Shown here one piece after another: positions 3,001 through 52,805 of a stretch of 64,000 nucleotides of DNA. The stretch is taken from NCBI RefSeq assembly GCF_007483665.1, contig NZ_VIQO01000039.1, positions 1 to 64,000 on the forward strand, given 5' to 3'. Both the position numbers and the translations under genes were made by a program. The notes beneath the pieces are model-generated. The model did no database searches and was not told where the DNA came from. It was given only the letters and a program-made list of their open reading frames with translations. The first letter of the stretch is position 1, and each line of letters begins with the position of its first letter. The DNA comes from Catellatospora sichuanensis (GTDB lineage: Bacteria; Actinomycetota; Actinomycetes; Mycobacteriales; Micromonosporaceae).

Positions 3001-3340
3001 CCCGAACCAGTCGGGCGGGATTCCCTCGGACAGATTCATCAACGGCACGCTGCAAGTGCTGAGCGACGGTTCTGTCCGGGTCAACGGGACTGTCGGTGCA
3101 CGGCTGCCGGATGGCTCGATCATCACCAAGGACGCCACGGTGGGGCATACGTTCTTTCCTGAGGACTGGGATGAAAACAAGATCATAGAGGCGGGGCAGT
3201 ATCTCTTCGCCCATGGCAGGTACACGTATCCCACGAAGGTCACGGCAACCTATGACGGTGTGAAGATGACCGGATTCCTCGAGAAGCAGGCCGACGGAAC
3301 CTATTCGCCGTCGACGTTCTTCCCTTCGGGGGGCAAATGA
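2..3340 (+). CDS. Polymorphic toxin: ALF repeats, Hint domain, EndoU-like C-terminal nuclease (5' partial)
   Basis: The reading frame is open to the window edge, so the N terminus and any secretion signal are missing. The first 1.8 kb encodes Ala-rich heptad-like helices (coiled coil). Between about nt 800 and 1350 there are repeats of the ALF type (FLDTGRYTAA, FLGTGQYTAA spaced about 43 residues apart), typical of actinobacterial polymorphic toxins. A hydrophobic stretch at nt 2100-2215 could cross a membrane. A Hint/intein-like self-processing domain follows (nt 2468-2910: NSFAPDTPVLLADG, TATANHPFW, VLVHNADG). The residue just before NSF is Gly; the nearest Cys is four residues upstream. 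The last 135 residues (RDHVMKG, GWHLHP, FFPEDWDENKI, and a terminal TFFPSGG) resemble the bacterial EndoU RNase toxin fold. Inference: a contact or secreted toxin whose tip is released by Hint cleavage and cuts RNA. EndoU assignment is good but not certain. Confidence 0.85.
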   Translation, partial: AVWAESAAAHARKAAADAVLDADKSAPAIEAATKASAAASNATDIAVQAGHVKQAIESANQAISAAYAAAEDAELAAIANEDAARFATEAGAEASEAVKQARLARANAVRAQRAAQAAERYLQVALAATIAARDAALRAAANAQAAAQAALHAAEHAGQAAEAASLATEHANAATVAAQAAVDAAAQAGTVFDAARVADAERLAVMRDEGLEGAQAANELYEAQQRQADFDDEQATKRDQQTSQLIALAQNPATPTAEAVAAARQVALALAQGQGVYTRQAALDSLAAPDDQALEFVRTGLAAAEARDDRHAVMNIAVTDNAALAAAARTALAGTDAQVRTFLRTQNYPGRYTQDRVKVNQLLAAASAAGDVVLAQAAQAALNAETLQALREFLDTGRYTAAATGQRVRVNQIAAAGGPEVKAAAQIALDGPPVLLAEFLGTGQYTAAERDYESMAHLSTVGGMLENIHQIATTAVQNSQLAHSVAAQARDDAQQAAAYAMQAAASAEQATAYAIQAQAYVAEATQAVDKAAAAAATARSAATRASTSARSAIRSAGWALLSHQAAVQSAIDAHDAAEFARAVALATGLNAADAAKQAFDAHISLRNVSITQCHHDYVDTPFDGLEELWGQPDGSFGRNCVLNNIPNPADPDEFVKRIYGNAALCKVYPEGGQLYRNCVNSTADPAFGAMMPMTYLAEALKSLTATFATVGLTSAVLCVVTVVCATVAGTLFSLVEIGDNVIKLVNGDQTLAQTLLNLGQSALESLLLAGVGKLLSAGFRHLKDLYVASRNANKLLVEIKLADLGRLHLVTAEWLKSCVRTGNSFAPDTPVLLADGSSRPIADVRIGDEVLATDPRSEVTRPRPVTDTIVGTGRKHLVEITVEGAGDESGPSRITATANHPFWVPDLRQWVDAGNLRAGQLLRTGSGAWVQISAVRSWTSQATVHNLTVAEDHTYYVVAGGTPVLVHNADGPPCITLAARDHVMKGVINGGGGFAGWHLHPNQSGGIPSDRFINGTLQVLSDGSVRVNGTVGARLPDGSIITKDATVGHTFFPEDWDENKIIEAGQYLFAHGRYTYPTKVTATYDGVKMTGFLEKQADGTYSPSTFFPSGGK

Positions 3341-3681
3341 CAGCTGTCTGGGAGTTCGCCTTCGACGAGGACGACGACCTCGTCATCACCAGCGAGTGGG
3401 TGCCGGCCGACCGCAAGCCGGCCCTGGAGATGCTGATCATGCTCCTCGGCGCCGCATGGCTGGTGGAGTTGTATCTCACGGAGTGGAGGAGACTCGAAGC
3501 CGAATTCGGACACGGCTATTCGGTTGGCACCGACGCGGTGAAGGTCCGCCGCATCGACGCCGAAGTCGCCTGCATCGAGGGCATCTACGGTCAGGTCGAA
3601 CCAGCGACGATCGGTGTCGCCGATCTCATCGAGATGTTGGAGAGTCTGGCCCGACATCTTCGTCGGCTCGGTCGCCTCTGA
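3337..3681 (+). CDS. Candidate immunity protein for the upstream EndoU-like toxin
   Basis: 114 residues. The ATG overlaps the toxin stop (ATGA), and a G-rich ribosome binding site lies inside the toxin's last codons, so the two are translationally coupled. The protein is acidic at the N terminus (FAFDEDDDL) with an amphipathic or hydrophobic helix near residues 30-45 and no signal peptide, which suits a cytoplasmic antitoxin. I do not recognise its family. The immunity role rests only on position directly after the toxin tip, the usual arrangement in polymorphic toxin loci, and on size. Confidence 0.75.
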   Translation: MTAVWEFAFDEDDDLVITSEWVPADRKPALEMLIMLLGAAWLVELYLTEWRRLEAEFGHGYSVGTDAVKVRRIDAEVACIEGIYGQVEPATIGVADLIEMLESLARHLRRLGRL

Positions 3682-4332: not shown

Positions 4333-7287
4333 ATGCCATCAAAATGGCGTATGGCGACCTTCAGCGTCGCCACAGCAATGACAGTGTCCATGTCGGCACT
4401 CGGCCTGTCCGCGCCGGCCTCCGCCGATCCGATCGCGATACCGTCGCTCGTCGGCGACGGCGTCTACCCGGGTGCGGCACAGATCCTGGAAGAACAGAAC
4501 GTCCGGCTGATCGCGGGCGACGGGCACGTTCTGCTCGTCGACTGCGCGACGCCGCCGCAGGGTGACATCGGCCTGCTGAAGATCTGGACCACCGACGAGA
4601 CGATCGGCACCAGCGGCATCGGCCTGGTGTGCTTCAAAGTGACCGCCGACGCGGGCTGGCTCAGCCTGGAGGTCCCCGGGGTGTACGAGATCCGCGGCGA
4701 CGGCCAGCGGACCGGCACCGGCCACGAGGTGACCGCCGAGCTCGAGGACGCGACCGGCGAGGAGATCACGGTCGAGGTCGACCCGGACGGCAGCACCCCG
4801 GTGGGTCTGGGCGCCGACCCGACCGCGCCGCCGACCATGCTGCTGCAGCTGCGGGCAGGGGAGGGCGCCGCGCCGGCCGTCGGCACCCAGACGGCGATCG
4901 GCAAGCTCTTCGCCGTCGACCGGATGTGCACCGCGACCCTGGTCGCGCCGCGCTGGGTGCTGAGCGCGACCAGCTGCTTCGCCGACGATCCCCTGCAGCC
5001 GGCACTGACCGAAGGCGCCCCCGCGCGCCCCGGTGTCGTCCGGTTCCCCGGCCACGCCGCCGCGACGATCGACTGGGTGACCCCGCGTACGGGCCGTGAC
5101 CTGGTCCTGGCTCGCCTGGCCACGCCGATCCTGGACATCACGCCGGTGGCGCTGGCGACGGCGGCCGCTGCCACGGCGACCGCGGTCGGTTACGGCCGCA
5201 CGGCCGTCGACTGGGTCGCCGATCAGCAGCAGAGCGCCCAGCTCAGCTTCACCGGCAGCACCGCCACGACCCTGTCGTCCACCAGCGGCCCGCTGGTGTG
5301 CAAGGGCATGGCCGGCGCGCCCGTGCTGTCCGGCGGCAAACTCGCCGCGGTGCTGACCCAGGCGGGCCAGGCGGGCTGCTTCGACCTCACCGCGACCGGC
5401 AGCGCCGTCACCGCGACGCGCGCCGACGACCTCGCCACCTGGTTCAACGCGATCACGACCACGGCCGCGGACCACAGCTGGAGCCTGGCCGACACGCCTG
5501 CGGGTGCGAGCACCGGCACGGCGGTGACGACCGCGTCCGACAGTGTGTACACCGGAACCGCGCGGCCGCTGACCGCGACCGCGGGTGCGACGTGGAATGT
5601 GACCGCCGGCGACACGTTCACCCCGAGCGTCGCGCTCGACGGCGTCTCCGGCAGCCTGGCCACGACCGCTTCGGCGGTGGCCACCGACGGCTCGTTCACG
5701 GTGTCGGCCTGGGTCAAGCCCACCGGCCAGCCCGGAACCGTGCTGTCCCAGGACGCGGTCAACAAGACCGGGTTCGAGCTGTCCTCGACGGCGGGCAACG
5801 CGTGGCAGTTCAGCGTGTCGACCGAGGACTCGCGGTGGCTGTCTGTCTGGCAGGGTGCACGTTCGGACGGCGACACGCTCACCGTCGGCAAGTGGACGAA
5901 ACTCACGGCTTCCTTCAACAAGACCGACGGCGTCCTGAAACTGTTCGTCGACGGCGTCGAGGTCGGCCGGCACAGGAACGACGGAAACGCCAGCGTCAGC
6001 TCGACCGGGCCGTTGCGGATCGGTGCGCAGCGCTCGCGCGGCACCGTCGGCAGCTTCTTCGGCGGCCAGGTCGCGGCGGTCCAGGTGTGGAACAGGGTGG
6101 TCGATCCGGTGCAGGCCCAAGGCCCTGCCAGCTATTACAAGCGCCTGGCCGCGCCGACCCGATTCCTGGACACTCGCAACGGCACCGGCGGCACCACCGG
6201 CACGGTCGACCTGAACGATTCCATCCGGGTGCAGATCGCCGGGGTCAACGGCGTGCCGGCCACCGGCGTCACCGCCGTGGCGCTGAACGTGGCGACCGTC
6301 TCGCCGCAGTTCGGCAGCGGACTGGTGGCCTGGCCCGACCTTACGCCGCAGCCGTTGGGCGTCAACCTGAAGTACCGTGCAGGGGTCGTCACGTCCGGCT
6401 ACATGATCGTTCCGGTGGGCAGCAACGGTTACATCCGCCTGTCGCCCGTCTGGCGGGAGACGTTCTTCATCAGTCAGCCGACTGACAAGAGCACGCACAT
6501 CCTGGCCGACGTCAGTGGCTACTTCACCACGGACAGCGCCGTCACCGGGATCAGTTCCTACACCCCGGTCGTGCCGGTCCGCTTCGCGGACAGTCGCACG
6601 GGGGCCGGTGGCAACACCGGGAAGGTCCCGGCCGGCGCCACGTGGAATTACAAGGTCACCGGTGCGACGGTCGGGACGGGCACGGTTCCGAACGGGATCA
6701 CCGCGGTGGCGGTCAACATCACCACGGTCTCCGCCACGGCAGGCGGGTTCGTCACCACCTGGGAGCAGGGGCAGGCCAAGCCGGCCGTATCCGGTCTGCA
6801 GTATCAGCCGACCGATGTCTACGCCGGCATGGCGATCATCCCGGTCAACCCCACCACGGGCCAGTTCTCCCTGAGCGCCCACCAGCCGACGCACGTCATC
6901 ATCGACATCCTGGGCTACTTCGCGCCCGGCACCAGTGGGCAGAAGTACCACGCGTTCCCGTCCACCGGCCTGTTGTACACGGCTGAGAGTGGCACACAGG
7001 CCCCGGCAGGGGGCAGCAAGACCGTCACGCCGGTCGCCAACATGGTCGGCGCCAACATCACGCTCGTCGTCGGACTGGCTGCGCTGTCATCCGGCGGTGG
7101 CATGGTCACGTCCTACCCCAGCGCCACGCCCGCGCCGAGCACGTCGACGCTGAACTTCATCGTCGACAAGTCCGTCAGCAACAGCACCGTCGTCAACGCC
7201 GGTGCCAACGGGTCGGTCGCCTTCGCGGTCAGTGGATCCGCGGCGCACCTTGCGGTGTACAGCGACGGGTTCTTCTCCAACAACTGA
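4333..7287 (+). CDS. Secreted pseudo-trypsin/LamG protein with FLDTR-type repeats (paralog A)
   Basis: 984 residues. A Sec signal peptide (about 1-31, ending ASA-DP) is followed by an unrecognised domain (33-175: LPSLVGDGVYP, LLVDCATPP, GVYEIRGDG). Next is a trypsin-like fold (about 185-370). Its His position reads Ser (WVLSATSC), the Asp strand is kept (GRDLVLARL), and the GDSGGP position reads GMAGAP, so the triad is dead. A LamG/concanavalin-like domain (about 445-590) ends in VQVWNR. The C terminus holds two good copies and a weaker third of a roughly 130-residue actinobacterial repeat (RFLDTRNGTGG to DVSGYF; RFADSRTGAGG to DILGYF). Expected role: extracellular binding, not proteolysis. 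The start is set by the SD at 4317 and the signal peptide. It is the only family member on the plus strand. Function is inferred from folds. Confidence 0.85.
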   Translation: MPSKWRMATFSVATAMTVSMSALGLSAPASADPIAIPSLVGDGVYPGAAQILEEQNVRLIAGDGHVLLVDCATPPQGDIGLLKIWTTDETIGTSGIGLVCFKVTADAGWLSLEVPGVYEIRGDGQRTGTGHEVTAELEDATGEEITVEVDPDGSTPVGLGADPTAPPTMLLQLRAGEGAAPAVGTQTAIGKLFAVDRMCTATLVAPRWVLSATSCFADDPLQPALTEGAPARPGVVRFPGHAAATIDWVTPRTGRDLVLARLATPILDITPVALATAAAATATAVGYGRTAVDWVADQQQSAQLSFTGSTATTLSSTSGPLVCKGMAGAPVLSGGKLAAVLTQAGQAGCFDLTATGSAVTATRADDLATWFNAITTTAADHSWSLADTPAGASTGTAVTTASDSVYTGTARPLTATAGATWNVTAGDTFTPSVALDGVSGSLATTASAVATDGSFTVSAWVKPTGQPGTVLSQDAVNKTGFELSSTAGNAWQFSVSTEDSRWLSVWQGARSDGDTLTVGKWTKLTASFNKTDGVLKLFVDGVEVGRHRNDGNASVSSTGPLRIGAQRSRGTVGSFFGGQVAAVQVWNRVVDPVQAQGPASYYKRLAAPTRFLDTRNGTGGTTGTVDLNDSIRVQIAGVNGVPATGVTAVALNVATVSPQFGSGLVAWPDLTPQPLGVNLKYRAGVVTSGYMIVPVGSNGYIRLSPVWRETFFISQPTDKSTHILADVSGYFTTDSAVTGISSYTPVVPVRFADSRTGAGGNTGKVPAGATWNYKVTGATVGTGTVPNGITAVAVNITTVSATAGGFVTTWEQGQAKPAVSGLQYQPTDVYAGMAIIPVNPTTGQFSLSAHQPTHVIIDILGYFAPGTSGQKYHAFPSTGLLYTAESGTQAPAGGSKTVTPVANMVGANITLVVGLAALSSGGGMVTSYPSATPAPSTSTLNFIVDKSVSNSTVVNAGANGSVAFAVSGSAAHLAVYSDGFFSNN

Positions 7288-7295
7288 CAGCCGAT

Positions 7296-7331
7296 CCCGG
7301 CGGCGGCGCGGATGCCGCGTTCGCCGCCGGG
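7296..7331 (+). terminator. Hairpin terminator after paralog A
   Basis: Perfect 10-bp stem CCCGGCGGCG / CGCCGCCGGG starting 9 bases after the stop at 7287, with a further small inner stem. There is no U-tract, as is common in high-GC actinobacteria. Confidence 0.6.
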
Positions 7332-7358
7332 GTTCGCAAGTCCTGAGTCACCCAGGCT

Positions 7359-7393
7359 GGGCCGCGCCGAAGCGTGAGCTTCCGGCGCGGCCC
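7359..7393 (+). terminator. Second strong hairpin before the orphan FG-GAP fragment
   Basis: Stem GGGCCGCGCC-GAAGC / GCTTC-GGCGCGGCCC with one bulged base and a GTGA loop. It lies between paralog A and the orphan fragment, so read-through into the fragment should be low. It may be a tandem terminator or a relic of a lost gene's leader. Confidence 0.45.
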
Positions 7394-7402
7394 GAGCTAC
7401 GG

Positions 7403-8107
7403 GTGCTCGACACCGAAAGATACGGCGTGCTGGTCGCCGACTTCAACGGTGATGGTAAGGACGACCTCGCATATCACGGGCTGTGCGGCACGCCCTCGGT
7501 GCCGTGCTGGCGGGTGCTCGCGAGCACCGGCACCGGCTTCGCCGCGGCGCGAAACTGGTCCACCGACAGCACGGTGACCAGTGCGGACACCTTCACCTAC
7601 GGGTTCCATGTCGGCGACTTCGACGACGACGGCCGGGCCGACATCGCCTTCCGGGCATCGTGTGGCACCGACCGGCACGCCTGCTGGACGGTGCTGGCGA
7701 GCCAGCCCGGCGACTCGTTCGCCGTGCGCGGCTTCGGCGACGGGATGTGGGCCGATCCGGCGCTGACGCCCACCTACGGCGTGCTGGCCGCGGACTTCGA
7801 CGGGGACCGCCGCACCGATCTCGCCTATCCCGGGCTGTGCGGCACCGGTGTGTCCTGCCTGCGCGTCCAGTCGTCCACCGGAACGTCGTTCGTCTCTCTG
7901 AACTGGATCACCAGCCCGTTCTACTTCGACGACGCACCGGTGAACGTGAGCGCGCACTTCGGCATGCGCGCGGCAGACCGCAACGGCGACGGGCTCGCGG
8001 ACGTCGCGACCTGGGGCAAGTGCGGTGCGCCCGGCGTACCGCAGTGGCGCTACCTGCTGAGCACCACCGGCGGCGCGACGGTGTCCTGCTCCACGACCGG
8101 TCCCTGA
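7403..8107 (+). pseudogene. Orphan FG-GAP/VCBS-repeat fragment, probable C-terminal remnant of a lost paralog
   Basis: Coding signal is clear from about 7395 to the stop at 8105-8107. It shows four FG-GAP units: LVADFNGDGKDDLAYHG, HVGDFDDDGRADIAF, LAADFDGDRRTDLAYPG and RAADRNGDGLADVATWG, each with a Cys pair (GLCGTPSVPC, GLCGTGVSC). Such repeats form extracellular calcium-binding propeller blades. There is no signal peptide, no clear ribosome binding site and no promoter. The first in-frame start is GTG at 7403, already inside the first repeat, and two GC hairpins lie just upstream. The frame differs from paralog A, so it is not a simple read-through extension. The best reading is the detached C-terminal module of a fifth pseudo-protease paralog. 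A short expressed cytosolic protein cannot be excluded. Confidence 0.6.
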
Positions 8108-8115
8108 GCTGTGCC

Positions 8116-8151
8116 GTGCGGGTGGCGGTTCCTCGGAGCCGCCACCCGCAC
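8116..8151. terminator. Bidirectional terminator between convergent genes
   Basis: Perfect 13-bp stem GTGCGGGTGGCGG / CCGCCACCCGCAC. It sits between the orphan fragment stop (8107, plus strand) and the paralog B stop (8165, minus strand) and can serve both directions. Confidence 0.7.
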
Positions 8152-8164
8152 ATGGGTCATGCCG

Positions 8165-10756
8165 TCAGTAGACGATGATCTTGTCTAGGTCGGGGGCGAA
8201 TGCGGTGTCGTTGAAGAACCTGACGGTGTGCACACCGGGACCGAGCTTGACCTGTATCGGCGCCGAGTCCACCGGATCGGTCCAGCTGGTTCCGGTGAGG
8301 GTGACCAGTTGCGGCACACCGCCGTTGATGCCGATGTAGAACGACCGCGTGCCGTTGACGACGTACGAAACCGTCAACCGGTATGCGGGGGAGGGGAGGT
8401 CGACCGTCAGCGTCACCTGGTTGGCGCCGTTGCCGATGAAACCGACCTTGTTCCCACCCGAGCAGGTGGGACAGGCGGTGACCACCGCAGCACCGACGAG
8501 GGTGCCGGACTCGGCCTCCACGCCGCCACAGGTGATCTTCAGGTTGGCCCAGTCGGCGTGGTCGGAGGTGACGCCGTTCCCCGCGTCCGTGACGACCAGG
8601 CGCAGCATCGTCGCGCCGCTGACGTCGGCGGTCAGCAGCGAGGCCGCCTGGGAAAAGGTCTTCGTCCCGCTGTCGGCGACTTTCGTCGAGTCCTTCCAGA
8701 TCTGGAAGACGACCGACCCAGCGGCGGTCTCCTCGTCGTCCACACCCACATATGCGCTGACCGACATGCAGCCGCCGCCCAGGTAGTAGTAGACCTCGGC
8801 GGGCGCATGCATGCCGAGGCCCTTGTAGTAATGGGTGCCGTTGATGGTCTGGGGGTTTCCGTCGCCGGCCGCGTCCTCGCCCACGCTGCTGTTCTTCTCC
8901 ACCGGCCCGAAGCCGTTGGCGGCCCAAAGCCAGTTCGTGTCGCTCAGGTAGGACGTGCCGCGCGGCGGCGGAGCGAACTTGGGCGTGACGACGGCCTGGT
9001 TCCAGGTCTGCACGAAGGCGACCTGCCCGCCGAAATAGCCGCCGACGGTGGCGGCACCGGTCCGGTAGGCCCCGATGCGCAGCGCTCCACCCGCGTTCCA
9101 GCTGGTGCTGTGCGGGGCGAACGCCACGTCCGCGTCGCCGACGCGCAGGTAGACCTTGTTGTCCGCCTTCTTGAACGTCGCGGTCAGGTGAGTCCACACG
9201 CCCGGTGCGAAACTAGCCGCCGGGGCTGCCGCCGTGTCCCACACGGGGACGGCGACGTCGGAACGGGTCATCGCGAAGCGCCAGGAGTTGTCGGACGGGT
9301 CGGCCCACAGCCGGAATCCCGCCGTGTTGACACCGTCCTGGGACAGAACCGTCCCGGCGACGGTGGCCTTGGCCCAGACGCTGACGGTGAAGTCCTCACC
9401 CGTGGTGACGGCGGGTGCGCCGGTGGTGAGCGTGCCGGTGGTGCCGTTGAGGGCGATGTTCGGGCTGAACTGGTCGCCGGTGTTCCAGGTCGTGCCGGCG
9501 GTGGCGGTCAGTGGCAGGGCGGTGCCGGTGAACACGGTGTCGGTGGTGGTGGTCACAGCGGTGCCCGGTGTGGCCGCCGCCGGCGTGTCGGCGAGGGTCC
9601 AGGTGTGTGCGGCGGTGGTGGTGGTGATGGCATTGGACCAGGTGGTGAGGTCGTCGGTGCGGGTGGCCGTCACGCTGGTGTCGGTCGCGGTGACGCCGAG
9701 GCAGCCTGCCTGTCCGGCTTGGGTGAGGATGGCGGCGAGTTTGCCGTCGGTCAGGACGGGTGCGCCGGCCATGCCGCTGCATACGAGCGGTCCTGATGTG
9801 GTGGTCAGGGTGGTGGCGGTGGTGTTGGTGAAGGTGATCTGTGCGGTCTGCTGCTGGTCGGTGATCCAGTCGGTGTTGCGGCCGTATCCGGTGGCGGTCA
9901 GCGCGACTCCGGTCGGTGCGGTGGTCGCGAGCGCGACGGGAGTGATGTCCTGAATGGCGGTGGCCAGGCGGGCCAGAACCACGTCGCGGCCCGCACGCGG
10001 ACTCAGCCAGTCCACCGCGACGGCGGCGTGGCCGGGGAACACGACGTGGTGCACTCCGACCGGGGCTCCCTCGGTCACCTGGGGCTGGTTCGGGTCGGTG
10101 GCGAGGCAGCTCGCGGCTGTGAGGACCCAGCGGGGTGCGACGAGGGTTGTGGTGCACATGCGGTCGGGGCCGGTGAGTTTGCCGACCGCGGCTTGTGTGC
10201 CGGTGACGGGTGCGGGGCCGTCGCCTGCGCGTAGTTGGAGCAGCATGGTGGGTGGTGCGGTGGGGTCGGCGCCGAGGCCGACGGGGGTGCTGCCGTCGGG
10301 GTCGATCTCGACGGTGATCTCTTCGCCGGTTTCGTCTTCGAGTTCGGCGGTGACTTCGTGGCCGGTGCCGGTGGTCTGGCCGTCGCCGCGGATTTCGTAG
10401 ACGCCGGGTACTTCGAGGTTCAGTACGCCGGATGGCGCGTTGACTTTGAAGCAGACCCGTCCGACGCCGTCGGGGCCGATCAGTTCGTCGGTGGTCCACA
10501 CCTTGAGCAGGCCGATGTTGCCGACCGGTGGGGTCGCGCAGTCGGCCAGCACGATGTGTCCGTCGCCGGAGATCAGTCGGACGTTCTGCTCGGCGAGAAT
10601 CTGCGCCGCGTCAGGGTAGGGATAGACACCGTCGTCCACCAGGGACGGAAGCGCGACCGGAACAGCACCGGCCGGTGCGGACACACCGACCACCGCCACC
10701 GAGAACGCCAGCGTGGAAGCGGCGCAGAGCGCCGCCGAACGCCACTTGGAACTCAT
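8165..10756 (-). CDS. Secreted pseudo-trypsin/LamG protein with NPCBM and CBM35-like modules (paralog B)
   Basis: 863 residues from ATG 10756, chosen because GGGGAG lies 7 bases upstream and a signal peptide follows at once (MSSKWRSAAL to PAGA). The order is signal peptide, shared N-terminal domain (LPSLVDDGVYPYPDAAQI), pseudo-trypsin (WVLTAASC for His, GRDVVLARL, GMAGAP for Ser), and LamG-like domain. From about residue 599 an NPCBM/NEW2-like beta-sandwich follows (GLGMHAPAEVYYYLGGGC, FQIWKDSTKVADSGT). The last 120 residues are a CBM35/CBM6-like domain with a CPTCSGG motif (EAESGTLVG, VGFIGNGANQV, APDLDKI). Both terminal modules bind carbohydrate in known families. Expected role: wall- or glycan-anchored extracellular protein without protease activity. 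About 1.2 kb of the N-terminal coding DNA is nearly identical to paralog D. Confidence 0.85.
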   Translation of the reverse strand: MSSKWRSAALCAASTLAFSVAVVGVSAPAGAVPVALPSLVDDGVYPYPDAAQILAEQNVRLISGDGHIVLADCATPPVGNIGLLKVWTTDELIGPDGVGRVCFKVNAPSGVLNLEVPGVYEIRGDGQTTGTGHEVTAELEDETGEEITVEIDPDGSTPVGLGADPTAPPTMLLQLRAGDGPAPVTGTQAAVGKLTGPDRMCTTTLVAPRWVLTAASCLATDPNQPQVTEGAPVGVHHVVFPGHAAVAVDWLSPRAGRDVVLARLATAIQDITPVALATTAPTGVALTATGYGRNTDWITDQQQTAQITFTNTTATTLTTTSGPLVCSGMAGAPVLTDGKLAAILTQAGQAGCLGVTATDTSVTATRTDDLTTWSNAITTTTAAHTWTLADTPAAATPGTAVTTTTDTVFTGTALPLTATAGTTWNTGDQFSPNIALNGTTGTLTTGAPAVTTGEDFTVSVWAKATVAGTVLSQDGVNTAGFRLWADPSDNSWRFAMTRSDVAVPVWDTAAAPAASFAPGVWTHLTATFKKADNKVYLRVGDADVAFAPHSTSWNAGGALRIGAYRTGAATVGGYFGGQVAFVQTWNQAVVTPKFAPPPRGTSYLSDTNWLWAANGFGPVEKNSSVGEDAAGDGNPQTINGTHYYKGLGMHAPAEVYYYLGGGCMSVSAYVGVDDEETAAGSVVFQIWKDSTKVADSGTKTFSQAASLLTADVSGATMLRLVVTDAGNGVTSDHADWANLKITCGGVEAESGTLVGAAVVTACPTCSGGNKVGFIGNGANQVTLTVDLPSPAYRLTVSYVVNGTRSFYIGINGGVPQLVTLTGTSWTDPVDSAPIQVKLGPGVHTVRFFNDTAFAPDLDKIIVY

Positions 10757-10809
10757 ACAGGAACTCCCCGTGATGTGTTTCGCAGAACCTGCCGGCGGAT
10801 GCCGGCAGG
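10757..10809 (-). promoter_or_regulatory. 5' leader of paralog B: hairpin plus CACGGGGAG
   Basis: A perfect 9-bp stem CCTGCCGGC / GCCGGCAGG with loop GGAT (10788-10809) lies 15 bases upstream of CACGGGGAG (10764-10772), which is 7 bases before ATG. CTACTT just upstream (10810-10815) resembles the -10 of paralog D. Confidence 0.45.
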
Positions 10810-10853
10810 AAGTAGCAGGACGCGCGTGCCGACACCCCACGTGCCGTCGTGCA

Positions 10854-10894
10854 GGGAGCCGGTGTCGCCGCGCTGGGCGGCGATACCGGCTCCC
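10854..10894 (-). terminator. Terminator of paralog C
   Basis: Stem GGGAGCCGGT / ACCGGCTCCC (10 bp) enclosing a second CGCCG / CGGCG stem, beginning 25 bases beyond the stop of paralog C. B and C are therefore probably separate transcripts. Confidence 0.65.
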
Positions 10895-10919
10895 TCGTCG
10901 AGAGGCGTGGACCTCGACG

Positions 10920-13634
10920 TCAGTTCGTGCTGGTGTTGAGCCTGAACCACAGGTGGCCGTCTTTTCGGCTGATCACTTCGAGCCTGCCGTCGCCGGTGAC
11001 GTCCGCGTACTGGACGTAGTCGCGAGTGTTTGCACCGGCACCGAGGTCGTACCAGACGTTGCTGAACGCCACGGTGCTGGTGGAGCTGGTGCTGAGCTTG
11101 ATGTACAGGTGGTCGTTGTAGCGACCGGCGAAGTCCGCCTTGCCGTCGTTGTCGATGTCGGCCACGGTGATGGTGTTCCAGGGGATCCAGCCGGCGCCGT
11201 CGTCGTGCCAGTTGGCGGCGAAGCTGACCGAGCTCGTGGTGCTGGTATTGATCTTGTACCACATGTGGCCGTCCAGCCGGCTGACCAGTTCGGGCTTGCC
11301 GTCGCCGGTGACGTCCGCGAGCTGGATGTGGTCGCGGGCGTTCCAGCCGGTGCCCAGGTCGATCCAGCCGCCGAACGAGATGGCGTTGGTGGAGCTGGTG
11401 CTGAGCTTGATGTACAGGTGGTCGTTGTAGCGGCCGACGATGTCTGCCTTGCCGTCGTTGTTGACGTCGACCGCGGAAATGGTGTTCCAGGGGATCCAGC
11501 CGGCGCCGTCGTCGTGCCAGTTGGCGGCGAAGCTGACCGAGCTCGTGGTACTCGTGTTGATCTTGTACCACAGGTGGCCGTTGTACCGGCCGATCAGCTC
11601 GGGCTTGCCATCTCCGGTGATGTCGGCGAGCTGGATGTAGTCCCACGTGTTCCAGCCATGGCCCAGGTCGATCCAGCCGCCGAACGAGATGGTGCCGCCG
11701 GTGCTGGTGCTGAGCTTGATGTACAGGTGGTCGTTGTAGCGGCCGACGAAGTCCGCCTTGCCGTCGTTGTTGACGTCCGCCGTGGTCATGGCGCTCCAGG
11801 GGATCCAGCCCGCGCCGTCGTCGAACCAGTCGGCGGCGAAGCCGAACGTGCCCGACGCGATGGTCTCCCTGTTCCAGGTCCGCACGTCGGCGACCCGGCC
11901 GTTGAAGAAGCCGCCGAGGGCCGAGCCACTGCGGTGGGCGCCGATGCGCAGGCCGCCCGTGGCCTTCCACTTGACGGCATGACCGGTGCCTGCGACCTTC
12001 GTGCCGTTGACGTGGACGGCCACGGTGCCGGTCGACGCCTTGTAGGTGACGGTGACCTGGCTCCATACACCTAGGGGTGCGCTGTTCGGGGGTGCGAAGG
12101 CGGTGTCCCACGCCGGGCTGGCGACATCGGTCTGGCTCATGGAGAACCGCCAGGACTTGTCGGACGGCTCGGACCACAGCTTGAACGCGGCGGTGTTGGT
12201 GCCGTCCTGGGACAGGACGGTGCCCCCGTTCGCGGTGGGCTTGGCGCGGACGCTGACGGTGAAGTCGGCATCCGTCGTGACCGCCGGCGCACCGGTGACC
12301 AGCGTGCCGGTCGACCCGTCGACCGTGACGGACGGGCTGAAGGTGTCGCCGGTGTTCCACTTCGCGCCCGTCGTGGCCGTCAGTGGCAGTGCGGTCCCGC
12401 TGAACACGCTGTCGGCGGCGCCCGTGACGCTGGTGCCCGAGGTCGCCGCGGCGGGCATGTCGGCCAAGGTCCAGGTGTGGTCCGCCGTGGTCGTGGTGAT
12501 GGCGTTGAACCAGCTGGCGAGGTCGTCGGTGCGGGCAGCCGTGACGCTGCTGTCCGTGCCGGTGACGCCGGGGCAGCCCGCCTGGCCGGCCCGGCTGAGC
12601 ACGGCGGCGAGCTTGCCGCCGGACAGGACGGGCGCGCCCGCCATGCCGCTGCACACCAGCGGTGCGGTGCCGACGGTCAGTGTCGTGGCGCTGCTCGCGG
12701 TGAACCTGAGCTGGGCGGTCTGCTGCTGGTCGGCGATCGGCGCGGTCGGCGTGCGGCCGAAGCCCACGGCGGGCACATCGACCCCGGTGGCGACGACGGC
12801 GGTGGCCAGGGCGATCGGGGTGATGTCCTGGATCGGGGTGGCGAGCCGGGCCAGGACCACGTCGCGGCCCGGTCGCGGGCTCAGCCAGTCGATCGCGGTG
12901 ACCGCGTGCCCGGGGAACACGGCGTGGCTCGCGCCGGCCGGTGCTCCTTCGGTCAGTTGCGGCTGGGCGGGGTTGTCGGCGAAGCAGCTGCCGGCGGTGA
13001 GCGCCCAGCGTGGCGCGACCAGGGTCGCGGTGCACATCCGGCCGCGGTGGGAGATCTTGCCGACCGCCGCCTGGGCGCCGGTGACCGGCGCGGGGCCGGT
13101 GCCGGTTCGCAGCTGCAGCAGCATGGTGGGGGAGGCGTCGGGGTCGGTGCCCAGGCCTACCGGGGTGCTGCCGTCGCGGTCGACCTGGACGGTGATCTCC
13201 TCACCGGCGTCGCTGACGAGTTCGGCGGTGACCTCGTGGCCGGTGCCGGTCCGCTGTCCGTCGCCGCGGATCTCGTACACGCCGGGGACCTGCAGGTTGA
13301 GCAGCCCGGACGCGGCCGTCACCTTGAAACACACCAGGCCGATGCCGCTGGTGCCGATCATCTCGTCGGTGGTCCATACCTTCAGCAGACCGATGTCGCC
13401 CTGTGGCGGCGTCGCGCAGTCGGCGAGCACGATGTGCCCGTCGCCGGAGATCAGCCTGACGTTCTGCGCCGCCAGGATCGCGGCCGCGTCGGGATAGGGG
13501 TAGACACCGTCGTCCACCAGCGACGGCAACGCGATCGGATCGGCGGCGGCGGGCGCCGACCCGGCGACCACCGCCAAAGACACGGCCACCGCTGTCGCGG
13601 TGCCGAACGCCGCTAAACGCGACATCGAACCCAT
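10920..13634 (-). CDS. Secreted pseudo-trypsin/LamG protein with FG-GAP repeat domain (paralog C)
   Basis: 904 residues from ATG 13634 (CACGGGGAG 6 bases upstream; signal peptide MGSMSRLAAFG to APAAA). It has the shared N-terminal domain, then a pseudo-trypsin: His position Ser (WALTAGSC), Asp strand kept (GRDVVLARL), Ser position Ala (CSGMAGAP). A LamG-like domain ends near residue 590 (VRTWNR). The last 300 residues are FG-GAP/VCBS repeats (DVNNDGKADFVGRYND, DITGDGKPELIGRYNG) alternating with WFDDGAGWIPW and INTSTTSSVSF strands. These are calcium-binding propeller blades of the kind found in secreted adhesins and enzymes. The repeat coding DNA is itself a 309-bp tandem repeat. Expected role: extracellular ligand binding. 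The ligand is unknown. Confidence 0.85.
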   Translation of the reverse strand: MGSMSRLAAFGTATAVAVSLAVVAGSAPAAADPIALPSLVDDGVYPYPDAAAILAAQNVRLISGDGHIVLADCATPPQGDIGLLKVWTTDEMIGTSGIGLVCFKVTAASGLLNLQVPGVYEIRGDGQRTGTGHEVTAELVSDAGEEITVQVDRDGSTPVGLGTDPDASPTMLLQLRTGTGPAPVTGAQAAVGKISHRGRMCTATLVAPRWALTAGSCFADNPAQPQLTEGAPAGASHAVFPGHAVTAIDWLSPRPGRDVVLARLATPIQDITPIALATAVVATGVDVPAVGFGRTPTAPIADQQQTAQLRFTASSATTLTVGTAPLVCSGMAGAPVLSGGKLAAVLSRAGQAGCPGVTGTDSSVTAARTDDLASWFNAITTTTADHTWTLADMPAAATSGTSVTGAADSVFSGTALPLTATTGAKWNTGDTFSPSVTVDGSTGTLVTGAPAVTTDADFTVSVRAKPTANGGTVLSQDGTNTAAFKLWSEPSDKSWRFSMSQTDVASPAWDTAFAPPNSAPLGVWSQVTVTYKASTGTVAVHVNGTKVAGTGHAVKWKATGGLRIGAHRSGSALGGFFNGRVADVRTWNRETIASGTFGFAADWFDDGAGWIPWSAMTTADVNNDGKADFVGRYNDHLYIKLSTSTGGTISFGGWIDLGHGWNTWDYIQLADITGDGKPELIGRYNGHLWYKINTSTTSSVSFAANWHDDGAGWIPWNTISAVDVNNDGKADIVGRYNDHLYIKLSTSSTNAISFGGWIDLGTGWNARDHIQLADVTGDGKPELVSRLDGHMWYKINTSTTSSVSFAANWHDDGAGWIPWNTITVADIDNDGKADFAGRYNDHLYIKLSTSSTSTVAFSNVWYDLGAGANTRDYVQYADVTGDGRLEVISRKDGHLWFRLNTSTN
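10930..11850 (-). repeat. 309-bp tandem repeat encoding 103-residue FG-GAP double units
   Basis: The same segment recurs at 11101, 11410 and 11719, exactly 309 bases apart, giving almost three units within the 3' end of paralog C. The copies are very similar at DNA level, so the array is young or homogenised and could change copy number by slippage or unequal crossover. Confidence 0.8.
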
Positions 13635-13684
13635 GTAAAGCTCCCCGTGGTTGATGTGGCCCGCCAGGCGAAGATGCCTGGCGG
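13635..13684 (-). promoter_or_regulatory. 5' leader of paralog C: hairpin plus CACGGGGAG
   Basis: A perfect 9-bp stem CCGCCAGGC / GCCTGGCGG (13661-13684) lies 11 bases upstream of CACGGGGAG (13641-13649), 6 bases before ATG. I could not find a convincing -35/-10 pair upstream. Confidence 0.45.
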
Positions 13685-13828
13685 ACAGGCGGTCGGCAGC
13701 GGATCCTCCGCATGACGCGTCAGAGCCCGCTGGCGATCGTCGTGATTGAACAGTGGCGCGACGACGACAGTAACGCCGTTGGGCCACCTGGTTCTGAACT
13801 GCTGAAACTCGACGTAGCGGAACACCTG

Positions 13829-13871
13829 TCATGATCATCGCGCGGCCGTCCGGCTGGCGCGATGATCATGA
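13829..13871 (-). terminator. Terminator of paralog D
   Basis: Perfect 15-bp stem TCATGATCATCGCGC / GCGCGATGATCATGA with a 13-base GC loop, 16 bases after the paralog D stop at 13888. Confidence 0.7.
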
Positions 13872-13887
13872 CGGGTTGGTTGCCGAG

Positions 13888-16635
13888 TCAGTTCGTGATC
13901 GGGGCGCCCAGGTTCTGGACGGGCGCCCAGATCGTGACGAAGTCCCACGACTTGAGGCTCAGATTGCCCGCGGAGTTGAGGTAGATCTCCATGTCACCGG
14001 TTCCCGGGTTGAAGGTCACCCACGGGCTGTTGGTGATCGGTGTGGTGAGATCGCCCGGATTGGCCCAGCCGACACTCGGCCGCCAGTACTTCTCCTTCAG
14101 CGCGCCACCGGAGTTGACGTAGACCTGCGTGTTGCCGTTGACCGGGTTGTAGACGGCCGCAGGGCTGCCCGTCATGGCGAGGGCGAGGTTGCCGAGGGTC
14201 GACCACCCGGCCGCCGCATTCCAGTAGAGCTCCTTGAGCAGGCCGCCCGAGTTGGCGTACACCTGAATGTTGTTGTTGTTCGGGTTGTACAGCGCGGACG
14301 GCTGGCCGGTCATCGGAACACCGAGGTTCTTCAGCGAGGACCAGGCACCGCCGGTGAAGTACTTCTCGCTCAGCGAGCCACCGGAGTTGAGGTACACCTC
14401 GACGTTTCGGTTGACCGGGTTGTAGATCACTGTCGGGCTGCCGGTGATGCTCGCGCCCAGGCTCTGCACCGCCGACCAGCCACCGCTCGGGCTCCAGTGC
14501 CGCTCCTTGAGCACGTTCCCGGAGTTGAAGTAGATCTCCACGTTGTCGGTGTTCGGATTGACCAGCACCGCCGGCTGGCCGGTCGCCGCCACACCGAAGG
14601 ACGTGGTGGTCCACGTGGTGCCGTCGAACGACGTCTCGCTGAGCAGCCCGCCGGAGACGTGGTAGACCTGGATGTTGTTGTTGACCGGGTTCTGCACGAC
14701 GGTCGGGATGCCCTGAACCGTGCTGCCCAGGGACTGGGGCACCGACCAGGACGTGCCGTTGAAGTGCGTCTCCTTGAGCGTGCCACCGGAGTTGAAGTAG
14801 ACCTCGGCGTTGCCGTTGCGGTTGATGAGGGTGGAGCCGGCGGTGGGGTAGGTGCGGAAGGCGGTGTTCGCCGCGTTCCACGTCTGGACGAGCGCCAGCT
14901 GGCCGGCGTACCAGGAACCGACGGTGCTCGCGCCGGTCTTGACCGCGCCCAGTCGAAGGCCGCCGGTGGCCGCCCACCTCGCGGGGTTGTGGATCGAGGC
15001 CCGGTTGACCCCGTCGACGTCGAGGGTCATCAGGCCGCTCGATGCCCTGAACGCGATGTTGAGGTGCGCCCACTGGCCCAGTTGCACGCTGTTCGCGGGA
15101 GCGGCAGCGGTCGCCCACGTGGCGGTGGTGCTGTCGGCACTGCTCATGGCGAATCGCCAGGACTTGGTCGCCGCGTCGCTGTACAGCTTGAACGCGGCCG
15201 TCTGGGTCCCGTTCTGCGACACGACCACGCCGCCGGCCACGGTCGGCTTGACTCGGACGCTGATGGTGAAATCGGCGTTCGTGTTGACGGCGGGTGCGCC
15301 GGTGGTGAGCGTGCCGGTGGTGCCGTTGAGGGCGATGTTCGGGCTGAACTGGTCGCCGGTGTTCCAGGTCGTGCCGGCGGTGGCGGTCAGTGGCAGGGCG
15401 GTGCCGGTGAACACGGTGTCGGTGGTGGTGGTGACGGGGGTGCCCGGTGTCGCTGTCGCTGGCATGTCGGCCAGGGTCCAGGTGTGTGCGGCGGTGGTGG
15501 TGGTGATGGCGTTGAACCAGGTGGTGAGGTCGTCGGTGCGGGTGGCGGTGACGCTGGTGTCGGTGGTGGTGCTGCCGAGGCAGCCTTGCTGTCCGGCTTG
15601 GGTGAGGATGGCGGCGAGTTTGCCGTCGGTCAGGACGGGTGCGCCGGCCATGCCGCTGCAGACCAGTGGTCCTGAAGCAGCCGACAGGGTGGTGGCGGTG
15701 GTGTTGGTGAAGGTGATCTGTGCGGTCTGCTGCTGGTCGGTGATCCAGTCGGTGTTGCGTCCGTAGCCGGTGGCGGTCAGTGCGACGCCGGTCGGTGCGG
15801 TGGTCGCGAGTGCGACGGGGGTGATGTCCTGGACCGGGGTGGCCAGGCGGGCCAGAACCACGTCGCGGCCGGTACGCGGGATCAGCCAGTCCACTGCGAC
15901 CGGGGCGTGCCCCGGGAAGGTGACCTGATAGGCGCCGTTCGATACGCCTTCGGTCACCTGGGGCTGGTTCGGGTCGGCGGCGAGGCAGCTCGCGGCTGCG
16001 AGGACCCAGCGGGGTGCGACGAGGGTTGTGGTGCACATGCGGTCGTGGCCGGTGAGTTTGCCGACCGCGGCTTGTGTGCCGGTGACGGGTGCGGGGCCGT
16101 CGCCTGCGCGTAGTTGGAGCAGCATGGTGGGTGGTGCGGTGGGGTCGGCGCCGAGGCCGACGGGGGTGCTGCCGTCGGGGTCGATCTCGACGGTGATCTC
16201 TTCGCCGGTTTCGTCTTCGAGTTCGGCGGTGACTTCGTGGCCGGTGCCGGTGGTCTGGCCGTCGCCGCGGATTTCGTAGACGCCGGGTACTTCGAGGTTC
16301 AGTACGCCGGATGGCGCGTTGACTTTGAAGCAGACCCGTCCGACGCCGTCGGGGCCGATCAGTTCGTCGGTGGTCCATACCTTGAGCAGGCCGATGTTGC
16401 CGACCGGTGGGGTCGCGCAGTCGGCCAGGACGATGTGTCCGTCGCCGGAGATCAGGCGGACGTTCTGCTCGGCGAGGATCTGCGCCGCGTCAGGGTAGGG
16501 ATAGACACCGTCGTCCACCAGGGACGGAAGCCCGACCGGAACAGCGCCCGCCGGGACGGCGCCGCCGGCCATCCAGCTGGACACCGCCACCGTCGCAGCT
16601 GTGCACATAGTTATTGCACGCAAAACAACACGCAT
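13888..16635 (-). CDS. Secreted pseudo-trypsin/LamG protein with probable seven-bladed lectin propeller (paralog D)
   Basis: 915 residues from ATG 16635 (G-rich SD 7 bases upstream; signal peptide MRVVLRAITM to PAGA). It has the shared N-terminal domain, then a pseudo-trypsin with Ser for His (WVLAAASC), GRDVVLARL kept, and Ala for Ser (CSGMAGAP), then LamG. From about residue 598 there are seven repeats of about 47 residues around a core such as NVEVYLNSGGSLSEKYF, NIQVYANSGGLLKELYW and NTQVYVNSGGALKEKYW, each followed by GW/W and a TGQP or TGSP turn. Seven such units suggest a closed seven-bladed propeller like PLL-type sugar-binding lectins. Expected role: extracellular glycan binding. The N-terminal 1.2 kb nearly matches paralog B, while LamG and C terminus differ. 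Confidence 0.85.
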   Translation of the reverse strand: MRVVLRAITMCTAATVAVSSWMAGGAVPAGAVPVGLPSLVDDGVYPYPDAAQILAEQNVRLISGDGHIVLADCATPPVGNIGLLKVWTTDELIGPDGVGRVCFKVNAPSGVLNLEVPGVYEIRGDGQTTGTGHEVTAELEDETGEEITVEIDPDGSTPVGLGADPTAPPTMLLQLRAGDGPAPVTGTQAAVGKLTGHDRMCTTTLVAPRWVLAAASCLAADPNQPQVTEGVSNGAYQVTFPGHAPVAVDWLIPRTGRDVVLARLATPVQDITPVALATTAPTGVALTATGYGRNTDWITDQQQTAQITFTNTTATTLSAASGPLVCSGMAGAPVLTDGKLAAILTQAGQQGCLGSTTTDTSVTATRTDDLTTWFNAITTTTAAHTWTLADMPATATPGTPVTTTTDTVFTGTALPLTATAGTTWNTGDQFSPNIALNGTTGTLTTGAPAVNTNADFTISVRVKPTVAGGVVVSQNGTQTAAFKLYSDAATKSWRFAMSSADSTTATWATAAAPANSVQLGQWAHLNIAFRASSGLMTLDVDGVNRASIHNPARWAATGGLRLGAVKTGASTVGSWYAGQLALVQTWNAANTAFRTYPTAGSTLINRNGNAEVYFNSGGTLKETHFNGTSWSVPQSLGSTVQGIPTVVQNPVNNNIQVYHVSGGLLSETSFDGTTWTTTSFGVAATGQPAVLVNPNTDNVEIYFNSGNVLKERHWSPSGGWSAVQSLGASITGSPTVIYNPVNRNVEVYLNSGGSLSEKYFTGGAWSSLKNLGVPMTGQPSALYNPNNNNIQVYANSGGLLKELYWNAAAGWSTLGNLALAMTGSPAAVYNPVNGNTQVYVNSGGALKEKYWRPSVGWANPGDLTTPITNSPWVTFNPGTGDMEIYLNSAGNLSLKSWDFVTIWAPVQNLGAPITN

Positions 16636-52690: not shown

Positions 52691-52722
52691 CGGCACCGAC
52701 GCACCAAGCACCACCGCACCTC

Positions 52723-52751
52723 GGCGCCGCCGGCAGCCGGCCGGCGGCGCC
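52723..52751 (+). terminator. Hairpin after DUF4832 paralog 2
   Basis: Perfect 11-bp stem GGCGCCGCCGG / CCGGCGGCGCC with a 7-base loop. Confidence 0.5.
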
Positions 52752-52805
52752 CGCACCGAACCCTTTCCTGTTCCTGAACTTCGTCCCCGAAGGGAACAAC
52801 GGTTC

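What the first reader, a model, noticed from the sequence alone, without database searches (positions are those of the whole stretch)
4333..16635. Family of four secreted trypsin-like proteins with the catalytic triad uniformly dismantled
All four paralogs keep the chymotrypsin-type framework (CT.TLVAPRW.L, GRD.VLARL, C.GMAGAP), but the catalytic His is Ser and the catalytic Ser is Ala in every copy, with the preceding Asp changed to Met. The same double loss in four diverged genes points to selection for a non-proteolytic role, such as a binding scaffold, inhibitor trap or decoy. I know of no described system of this composition.
Basis: partly seen in the sequence, partly recalled or inferred. 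Interest (0 to 1): 0.85.

Follow-up and report, generated by a model that had tools for sequence, protein, structure and literature searches.

The report
Fused arms of umbrella toxin particles
The four "dead trypsins" look like the arms of an antibacterial umbrella toxin particle: the protease fold serves as a docking socket rather than an enzyme, and the adaptor that normally plugs into it is fused to the same protein.

Summary
In detail: four intact genes encode secreted proteins whose trypsin-like domain has Ser at His57, Met at Asp194 and Ala at Ser195 (Asp102 is kept). The claim that no such system is described does not hold. The trypsin part matches UmbA, and the ~145 residues before it match UmbB, of the Streptomyces umbrella toxin particle (PDB 8w20). 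The start of the window encodes an UmbC-like toxin (ALF repeats, PT-HINT, EndoU). Published work already reports that S. coelicolor UmbA domains lack the triad, that two tested showed no protease activity, that UmbB lies in the old substrate cleft, and that UmbA-UmbB fusions exist (PMC11062931).

So this is a new member of a known kind, in Micromonosporaceae. The genome carries 17 UmbB-UmbA fusions, no separate UmbB that the searches found, and 7-9 UmbC-like genes. No His57 occurs in 130 UmbA-like domains; the replacing residues vary.

One pattern not seen in what I read: separate UmbA proteins often appear to begin, after signal-peptide removal, at a trypsin-like V-x-G-G N-terminus and nearly always keep Asp194, which is lost mainly in one clade with UmbB fused in front. 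This is a hypothesis, not independently replicated.

The parts
2..3340 (+). UmbC-like toxin, C-terminal part (open at the start of the contig): ALF repeats at 929-1342, PT-HINT about 2504-2908, EndoU nuclease tip about 2936-3328
   Evidence: Pfam ALF 4.1e-26, PT-HINT 1.5e-15, EndoU 2.4e-10; ALF places; the contig begins at window base 1
3337..3681 (+). 114-aa ORF overlapping the end of the UmbC gene; candidate immunity protein (UmbD position)
   Evidence: position only; no Pfam or NCBIfam match; inference
4333..7287 (+). Gene A, UmbB-UmbA fusion: UmbB part about 4429-4860, trypsin-like part about 4891-5448, Laminin_G_3 5641-6108, RFLDTR-type tail (name of the tail motif recalled)
   Evidence: phmmer to 8w20_B 2.1e-07 (residues 3-175) and 8w20_C 2.6e-18 (residues 196-455); Pfam Trypsin and Laminin_G_3
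4972..4974 (+). Ser214 codon of gene A, at the place of catalytic His57
   Evidence: alignment A1, alignment of 113 domains
5308..5313 (+). Met326-Ala327 codons of gene A, at the places of Asp194-Ser195
8165..10756 (-). Gene B, UmbB-UmbA fusion with Laminin_G_3, NPCBM and a CBM_35 match below its cut-off at the tip
   Evidence: UmbB part 100% identical to that of gene D
10920..13634 (-). Gene C, UmbB-UmbA fusion with Laminin_G_3 and FG-GAP repeats at the tip
13888..16635 (-). Gene D, UmbB-UmbA fusion with a tail resembling the Ralstonia-type fucose lectin repeat
   Evidence: NCBIfam NF052355 1.9e-09, 37.7 bits against a cut-off of 100
7289..8107 (+). Headless FG-GAP segment (no UmbB, no trypsin part, no clear signal peptide) just after gene A; possible orphan tip cassette
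   Evidence: FG-GAP 9.6e-13; GC3 88%; 26-33% identity to FG-GAP tips of two other arms of the genome

Best explanation
The four genes encode the arms (spokes) of an antibacterial umbrella toxin particle. In each protein the N-terminal ~145 residues are the UmbB adaptor and the next ~190 are the UmbA trypsin-like socket, followed by a carbohydrate-binding or propeller-like tip. The UmbB face is expected to clip onto ALF repeats of the neighbouring UmbC-like EndoU toxin (and of other UmbC proteins of the genome). The start of UmbB is expected to lie in the old substrate cleft of the dead protease, and the variable tip to choose the target cell. Losing His57 and Ser195 fits: the cleft holds a permanent peptide and must not cut it. 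Shown here: homology of both halves, loss of catalytic residues, predicted trypsin fold, neighbouring UmbC-like toxin, conservation falling from UmbB to socket to tip. Inferred from the published S. coelicolor particle: assembly, docking in the cleft, delivery, killing.
For: Sequence matches to solved umbrella particle chains: 8w20_C 2.6e-18, 9oee_A 1e-17 (UmbA) and 8w20_B 2.1e-07 (UmbB); the next PDB match is at E 0.1. AlphaFold2 of the trypsin part: mean pLDDT 82, pTM 0.84; the top four Foldseek PDB hits are umbrella-particle chains (8w20_E, C, G and 9oee_A; E 3.5e-14 to 2e-13, TMq 0.78-0.80), then mesotrypsin and other trypsins. UmbC-like neighbour with ALF, PT-HINT and EndoU. Genome-wide: 17 fusions, five full-length UmbC-like ORFs with 7-8 ALF stretches each; ALF in 0 of 14 control genomes; all 15 matches of an S. 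coelicolor UmbB query lie inside fusion ORFs. Identity among the 17 arms averages UmbB 80%, socket 55%, tip 31%, as expected if the UmbB face must fit shared rings while tips diversify. The Arg that S. coelicolor UmbA needs for UmbB (my alignment places it at R289 of gene A, inferred) is Arg in 37 of 39 N-fusions, 11 of 11 C-fusions and 80 of 80 domains without UmbB in the ORF. Published: UmbA without the triad, UmbB strand in the cleft, UmbA-UmbB fusions (PMC11062931).
Against: AlphaFold2 of UmbB plus socket failed (pLDDT 28, 11 close rows), so docking in its own cleft was not modelled here. The window UmbC is cut by the contig start, so ring completeness is untested for it; 2 of 7 UmbC-like ORFs scanned show no PT-HINT match. 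The tips here (LamG, NPCBM, FG-GAP) differ from most S. coelicolor tips, and sugar binding is only inferred. The immunity candidate has no family match. The UmbB Glu of the docking motif is Asp in genes B-D and Gly in gene A.
Confidence: 0.93

Rival explanations
1. Stand-alone pseudoproteases acting as inhibitor traps or decoys for foreign proteases or inhibitors, with no link to a toxin particle.
For: Dead catalytic site, intact predicted fold, N-termini that look like signal peptides.
Against: The fused UmbB module, the adjacent UmbC-like toxin and the identity pattern across 17 arms are unexplained by it; the published relatives are particle subunits.
Confidence: 0.03
2. Active secreted esterases of the FusH type (fusidic acid esterase), as some annotations ('secreted esterase') suggest, using another catalytic arrangement.
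For: NCBIfam FusH is the best-scoring NCBIfam model (68-87 bits), and the PDB chains of UmbA carry the name 'secreted esterase'.
Against: Scores are far below the FusH cut-off of 999 and the best stretch covers profile positions 71-259 of 520; neither His57 nor Ser195 is present. Whether FusH itself has a catalytic site was not checked.
Confidence: 0.02
3. Arms that no longer assemble: a decaying paralogue family drifting after loss of function.
For: Docking Glu relaxed to Asp or Gly and Asp194 replaced by several residues in one clade; a headless tip fragment lies beside gene A.
Against: Seventeen long open frames with UmbB parts 69-100% identical between paralogues and diversified tips; strong third-position GC and similar ribosome sites in the four window genes.
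Confidence: 0.02

Closest known systems
UmbA (UmbA1, UmbA4) of Streptomyces coelicolor, PDB 8w20 and 9oee
   Same: Trypsin-like domain with Ser at His57 and no Ser195 (alignments), variable binding tip; top sequence and fold match
   Different: UmbA is a separate protein and keeps Asp194 (GDTGGP, GDAGGP); here UmbB is fused in front and Asp194 is Met
UmbB of S. coelicolor, PDB 8w20 chain B
   Same: Homologous adaptor domain with the x-V-[E/D]-D ... YP start
   Different: Here part of the arm protein; docking Glu is Asp or Gly; no separate UmbB found in the genome
UmbAB fusions noted in Zhao et al. 2024 (PMC11062931, section 10 and Fig. 5c legend, read)
   Same: UmbA and UmbB in one chain, UmbB start modelled in the trypsin cleft
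   Different: Order of the domains is not stated in the text read; two orders were found here (UmbB first, or UmbB last)
FusH, fusidic acid esterase (NCBIfam NF000157)
   Same: Homologous trypsin-like region
   Different: Far below the curated cut-off; no catalytic His or Ser here

Membership tests
UmbA (umbrella toxin arm) | Trypsin-like domain homologous to UmbA | tested here: met
   phmmer 2.6e-18 to 8w20_C; Foldseek E 3.5e-14 to 8w20_E
UmbA (umbrella toxin arm) | Incomplete catalytic triad | tested here: met
   Ser at 57, Ala at 195 in 4 of 4; 0 of 130 UmbA-like domains keep His57
UmbA (umbrella toxin arm) | Variable lectin or binding tip after the trypsin part | tested here: met
   Laminin_G_3, NPCBM, FG-GAP, fucose-lectin-like repeats; sugar binding itself not tested
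UmbA (umbrella toxin arm) | Cleft holds the N-terminal strand of UmbB through a Glu-Arg contact | tested here: inconclusive
   Arg conserved, Glu is Asp or Gly in the window; AlphaFold2 of both parts failed
UmbB (adaptor) | Homology to UmbB | tested here: met
   2.1e-07 to 8w20_B
Umbrella toxin locus | UmbC with ALF repeats and polymorphic toxin tip near UmbB | tested here: met
   window 2-3340: ALF, PT-HINT, EndoU, about 1 kb before gene A
Umbrella toxin locus | Immunity gene beside umbC | tested here: inconclusive
   ORF 3337-3681 in the right place, no family match
Umbrella toxin particle | Secreted five-spoked particle that inhibits competitors | not testable with these tools
   needs purification, electron microscopy and growth assays
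Active trypsin-family (S1) protease | His57, Asp102, Ser195 | tested here: not met
   only Asp102 present
FusH fusidic acid esterase | NCBIfam curated cut-off | tested here: not met
   68-87 bits against 999

The most novel reading that the evidence does not exclude
Umbrella arms have kept the zymogen switch of trypsin after losing the enzyme: in separate UmbA, signal-peptide removal creates the V-x-G-G N-terminus that pairs with Asp194 and shapes the cleft, so the UmbB socket becomes usable only after export, which would stop particles assembling inside the producer. Where UmbB is fused in front of the domain the free N-terminus cannot exist; the socket is served by its own tethered UmbB, and both Asp194 and the docking Glu become free to change.
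Probability: 0.22. Interest if true: 0.6.

Novelty: new member of a known kind. Interest (0 to 1): 0.3.

Why it matters
It shows that a striking "dead protease" family is part of a known class of antibacterial particle, in a Micromonosporaceae genome where every arm found has its adaptor built in: 17 arms against 7-9 toxins. That would change where mixing happens: in S. coelicolor a separate UmbB lets arms be swapped at the UmbA-UmbB contact; here swapping should be possible only at the arm-to-ring contact. It also gives a testable idea for why a dead protease keeps its activation machinery.

Tried and rejected
Inhibitor trap or decoy: dropped once the UmbB half and the UmbC-like neighbour were found. 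Active esterase (FusH): cut-off not met, no catalytic residues. AlphaFold2 of UmbB plus socket with 11 close rows gave pLDDT 28 and was not used; a second job on the trypsin part alone with 15 rows worked.

The idea that fusion of UmbB in front always frees Asp194 was tested on a larger set and is not borne out in general: 13 of 39 N-fusions keep Asp194, the 11 outside the main clade all keep it, and the independent-pairs test found one usable pair on supported branches with no difference. What remains is that the loss is confined to one N-fusion clade (26 of its 30 rows) plus one separate UmbA. A regular-expression count of the docking Glu was faulty and was replaced by alignment.

Row selection. 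In one search duplicates and trypsin stretches under 140 residues were dropped, then rows needed a score above 145 and Cys42: 130 kept, with no filter on residue 57; 22 printed rows were set aside, 16 of them with His57 (ordinary trypsins by that mark) and 6 without or unreadable. Searches use rows above 139 bits with Cys42, without His57 and with residue 194 readable (133); the tree left out two of them: L091, whose position-57 region aligned badly, and L138, the Trp194 row. One search found a signal-peptide site in 87 of the 90 rows that are not N-fusions. Sampling: genomes were found by matches to the window's own domain or to the UmbB profile, and fusions outside the window genome were fetched because their open frame was long, so the classes are not sampled alike and distant UmbA types are under-sampled.

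Full report
What is there. The window is the start of contig C28 of a 9.45 Mb, 65-contig genome. Four long genes, A-D, at 4333-16635 encode proteins of 863-984 residues with N-termini that look like signal peptides. Coding character is clear: third-position GC 87-94%, a similar ribosome-site motif before each start. All four have a Pfam Trypsin match above the cut-off, with Ser at His57, Asp102 kept, Met at Asp194, Ala at Ser195 and Ala at Gly197.

What it belongs to. A sequence search of the PDB with gene A gives three strong matches (the next is at E 0.1): residues 196-455 match 8w20_C (2.6e-18), a similar stretch matches 9oee_A (1e-17), and residues 3-175 match 8w20_B (2.1e-07). Entry titles call 8w20 the Umb1 umbrella toxin particle and 9oee an UmbA4 complex. 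In the published S. coelicolor particle these are UmbA and UmbB (PMC11062931; 12 of 18 passages shown, sections 10 and 7 read). Each window gene is therefore UmbB fused in front of UmbA. AlphaFold2 on the trypsin part of gene A with 14 relatives gave mean pLDDT 82 and pTM 0.84. The closest PDB structures are 8w20_E, C and G and 9oee_A, then mesotrypsin and other trypsins.

The partner toxin is next door. The ORF at window 2-3340, cut by the contig start, has ALF repeats, a PT-HINT domain and an EndoU nuclease tip, which is the UmbC plan. A 114-residue ORF overlapping its end (3337-3681) stands where the immunity gene stands in S. coelicolor but matches no family.

The genome. It has 17 UmbB-UmbA fusion ORFs (18 matches, of which one, L023, is an ordinary trypsin with His57). 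All 15 matches to an S. coelicolor UmbB query lie inside fusion ORFs; that query missed 2 of the 17, so it is not fully sensitive. A 23-row UmbB profile gave 14 matches in this genome, again in fusion ORFs, but only the best 14 of 95 candidates were scored. No separate UmbB was found. ALF-bearing ORFs: five full-length UmbC-like ones on C11, C7, C29, C23 and C22; four partial ones at contig ends (window C28, C22, C15, C29); and one on C9 whose C-terminus reads as a sortase-type anchor and is not counted. Hence 7-9 UmbC genes, since N- and C-terminal halves may belong together (in one search, 150 of 338 candidates were scored, and ALF was found in 0 of 14 control genomes). Of the seven scanned with Pfam, five have PT-HINT; recognised tips are EndoU (window), Colicin D type and DddA-like deaminase on C22, and a weak Ntox27 below cut-off on C23. 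Identity among the 17 arms falls from UmbB (mean 80%, range 69-100) to socket (55%, 40-89) to tip (31%, 0-67). That is what one expects if the UmbB face must fit shared rings and the tips diversify. Tips include LamG, FG-GAP, NPCBM, CBM_4_9, ricin-type and B-lectin domains and, in one arm, a glycosyl hydrolase family 10 domain.

Organism. The genome's family is Micromonosporaceae by this inference: contig G1036:C6, a genome in the same family code, is 416,422 bases long, the same as Winogradskya consettensis NZ_BOQP01000006.1. The genus was not identified.

Spread. With the trypsin part as query: 18 of 61 genomes of the family (E 1e-3, ordinary trypsins included), 21 of 298 of the order and 20 of 394 of the class (E 1e-15). 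With the UmbB profile: 49 of 249 genomes of a second family, f15, and 51 of 300 of the own family.

How fixed is the loss? In one search, 130 UmbA-like domains (score above 145, Cys42 present, no filter on residue 57) contain no His57: 39 with UmbB in front, 11 with UmbB at the C-terminus, 80 without UmbB in the same ORF. Ser195 is kept in 5 of 130, in none of the 39 with UmbB in front. Replacements vary (57: mostly S, also A, T, G, N, R and others; 195: A, T, G). The Ser/Ala pair of the window occurs in 65 of 131 rows. So absence of catalysis is fixed across genera; the particular pair is not.

Two fusion orders. UmbB stands in front of the trypsin part in the window genome, Nonomuraea, Thermocatellispora, a Hamadaea MAG and others, and after the tip in Micromonospora sp. 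KC606, Winogradskya, Jidongwangia and others. On a quick tree of 131 rows, UmbB-in-front needs 8 changes and UmbB-behind 4; only 31 of 128 inner branches are strongly supported. Fusions of UmbA and UmbB were already noted in PMC11062931; the order of domains is not given in the text I read, and its supplements were not open to me.

The Asp194 pattern. In active trypsins Asp194 pairs with the new N-terminus at residue 16 (established knowledge, recalled). With a crude signal-peptide rule, 49 of 76 separate UmbA and 6 of 11 UmbB-behind fusions begin V/I/L-x-G/S, the cut lying mostly 24-32 residues before Cys42, against 8 of 73 separate UmbB proteins used as a control. Asp194 is Asp in 79 of 80 separate UmbA and 11 of 11 UmbB-behind fusions, but in 13 of 39 UmbB-in-front fusions, where it is otherwise Met 20, Tyr 2, Ala 2, Asn 1, Thr 1. 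The one exception among separate UmbA (L138, Trp) begins after its apparent signal peptide with GPIPGPAW instead of V-x-G-G, although the loose rule scored it as having the motif; that loose rule also flagged 2 of 41 UmbB-in-front rows. The docking Glu of UmbB, shown by others to be needed for UmbA binding, is Glu in 75 of 76 separate UmbB (one Gln) and 8 of 8 UmbB-behind rows, but Asp 21, Glu 18, Gly 1 in UmbB-in-front fusions (duplicates removed); on the tree's rows it is Glu in 10 of 11 UmbB-behind fusions, with one Val.

Limits of that pattern. All losses of Asp194 in fusions fall in one clade of 30 rows (26 lost, 4 kept; branch support 98 as printed), while 11 other UmbB-in-front rows keep it. 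The independent-pairs test gave one usable pair on supported branches and no difference. The link between fusion and loss of Asp194 is therefore suggested by one clade and one singleton, not established.

Literature. Searches of the open library for umbrella toxin, UmbA, UmbB and UmbC gave two papers that work on the system: PMC11062931 (abstract, outline, passages, sections 7 and 10 read) and PMC13274773 (passages and section 46 read). Other papers that mention the term were seen as listings only. The main text of neither contains 'zymogen' or 'oxyanion', and 'Asp194' does not occur in PMC11062931 (not asked of the other). This does not show that the pattern is unpublished elsewhere.

Verdict. 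The genome's all-fused, 17-arm set and the possible relic activation switch are the parts worth keeping.

Noticed in passing
window 7289-8107 (+): Headless FG-GAP segment without UmbB, trypsin part or clear signal peptide right after gene A; 26-33% identical to FG-GAP tips of two other arms of the genome. It may be an orphan tip cassette left by tip exchange.
   Followed up: partly
window genes B (8165-10756) and D (13888-16635): UmbB parts 100% and sockets 89% identical while tails are 42% identical: perhaps recent duplication or conversion of the head with exchange of the tip.
   Followed up: partly
L219:3485-6904 (genome contig C15): An arm with a glycosyl hydrolase family 10 domain (2.9e-91) plus Laminin_G_3 in its tail.
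   Followed up: no
L216 (contig C9, about 52143-53120): ALF-repeat protein of 326 aa whose end reads as a sortase-type cell-wall anchor (LPTTG, hydrophobic stretch, arginines; recalled motif); not counted as an UmbC.
   Followed up: no
L027 (contig C22, 172249-175602): UmbC-like protein with a DddA-like double-stranded DNA deaminase tip (3.2e-16).
   Followed up: no
L024/C28, L027/C22, L215/C15, L217/C29 contig ends: Four contig ends fall inside UmbC-like genes, suggesting that repeats among UmbC paralogues broke the assembly; the window's UmbC is one of them.
   Followed up: partly
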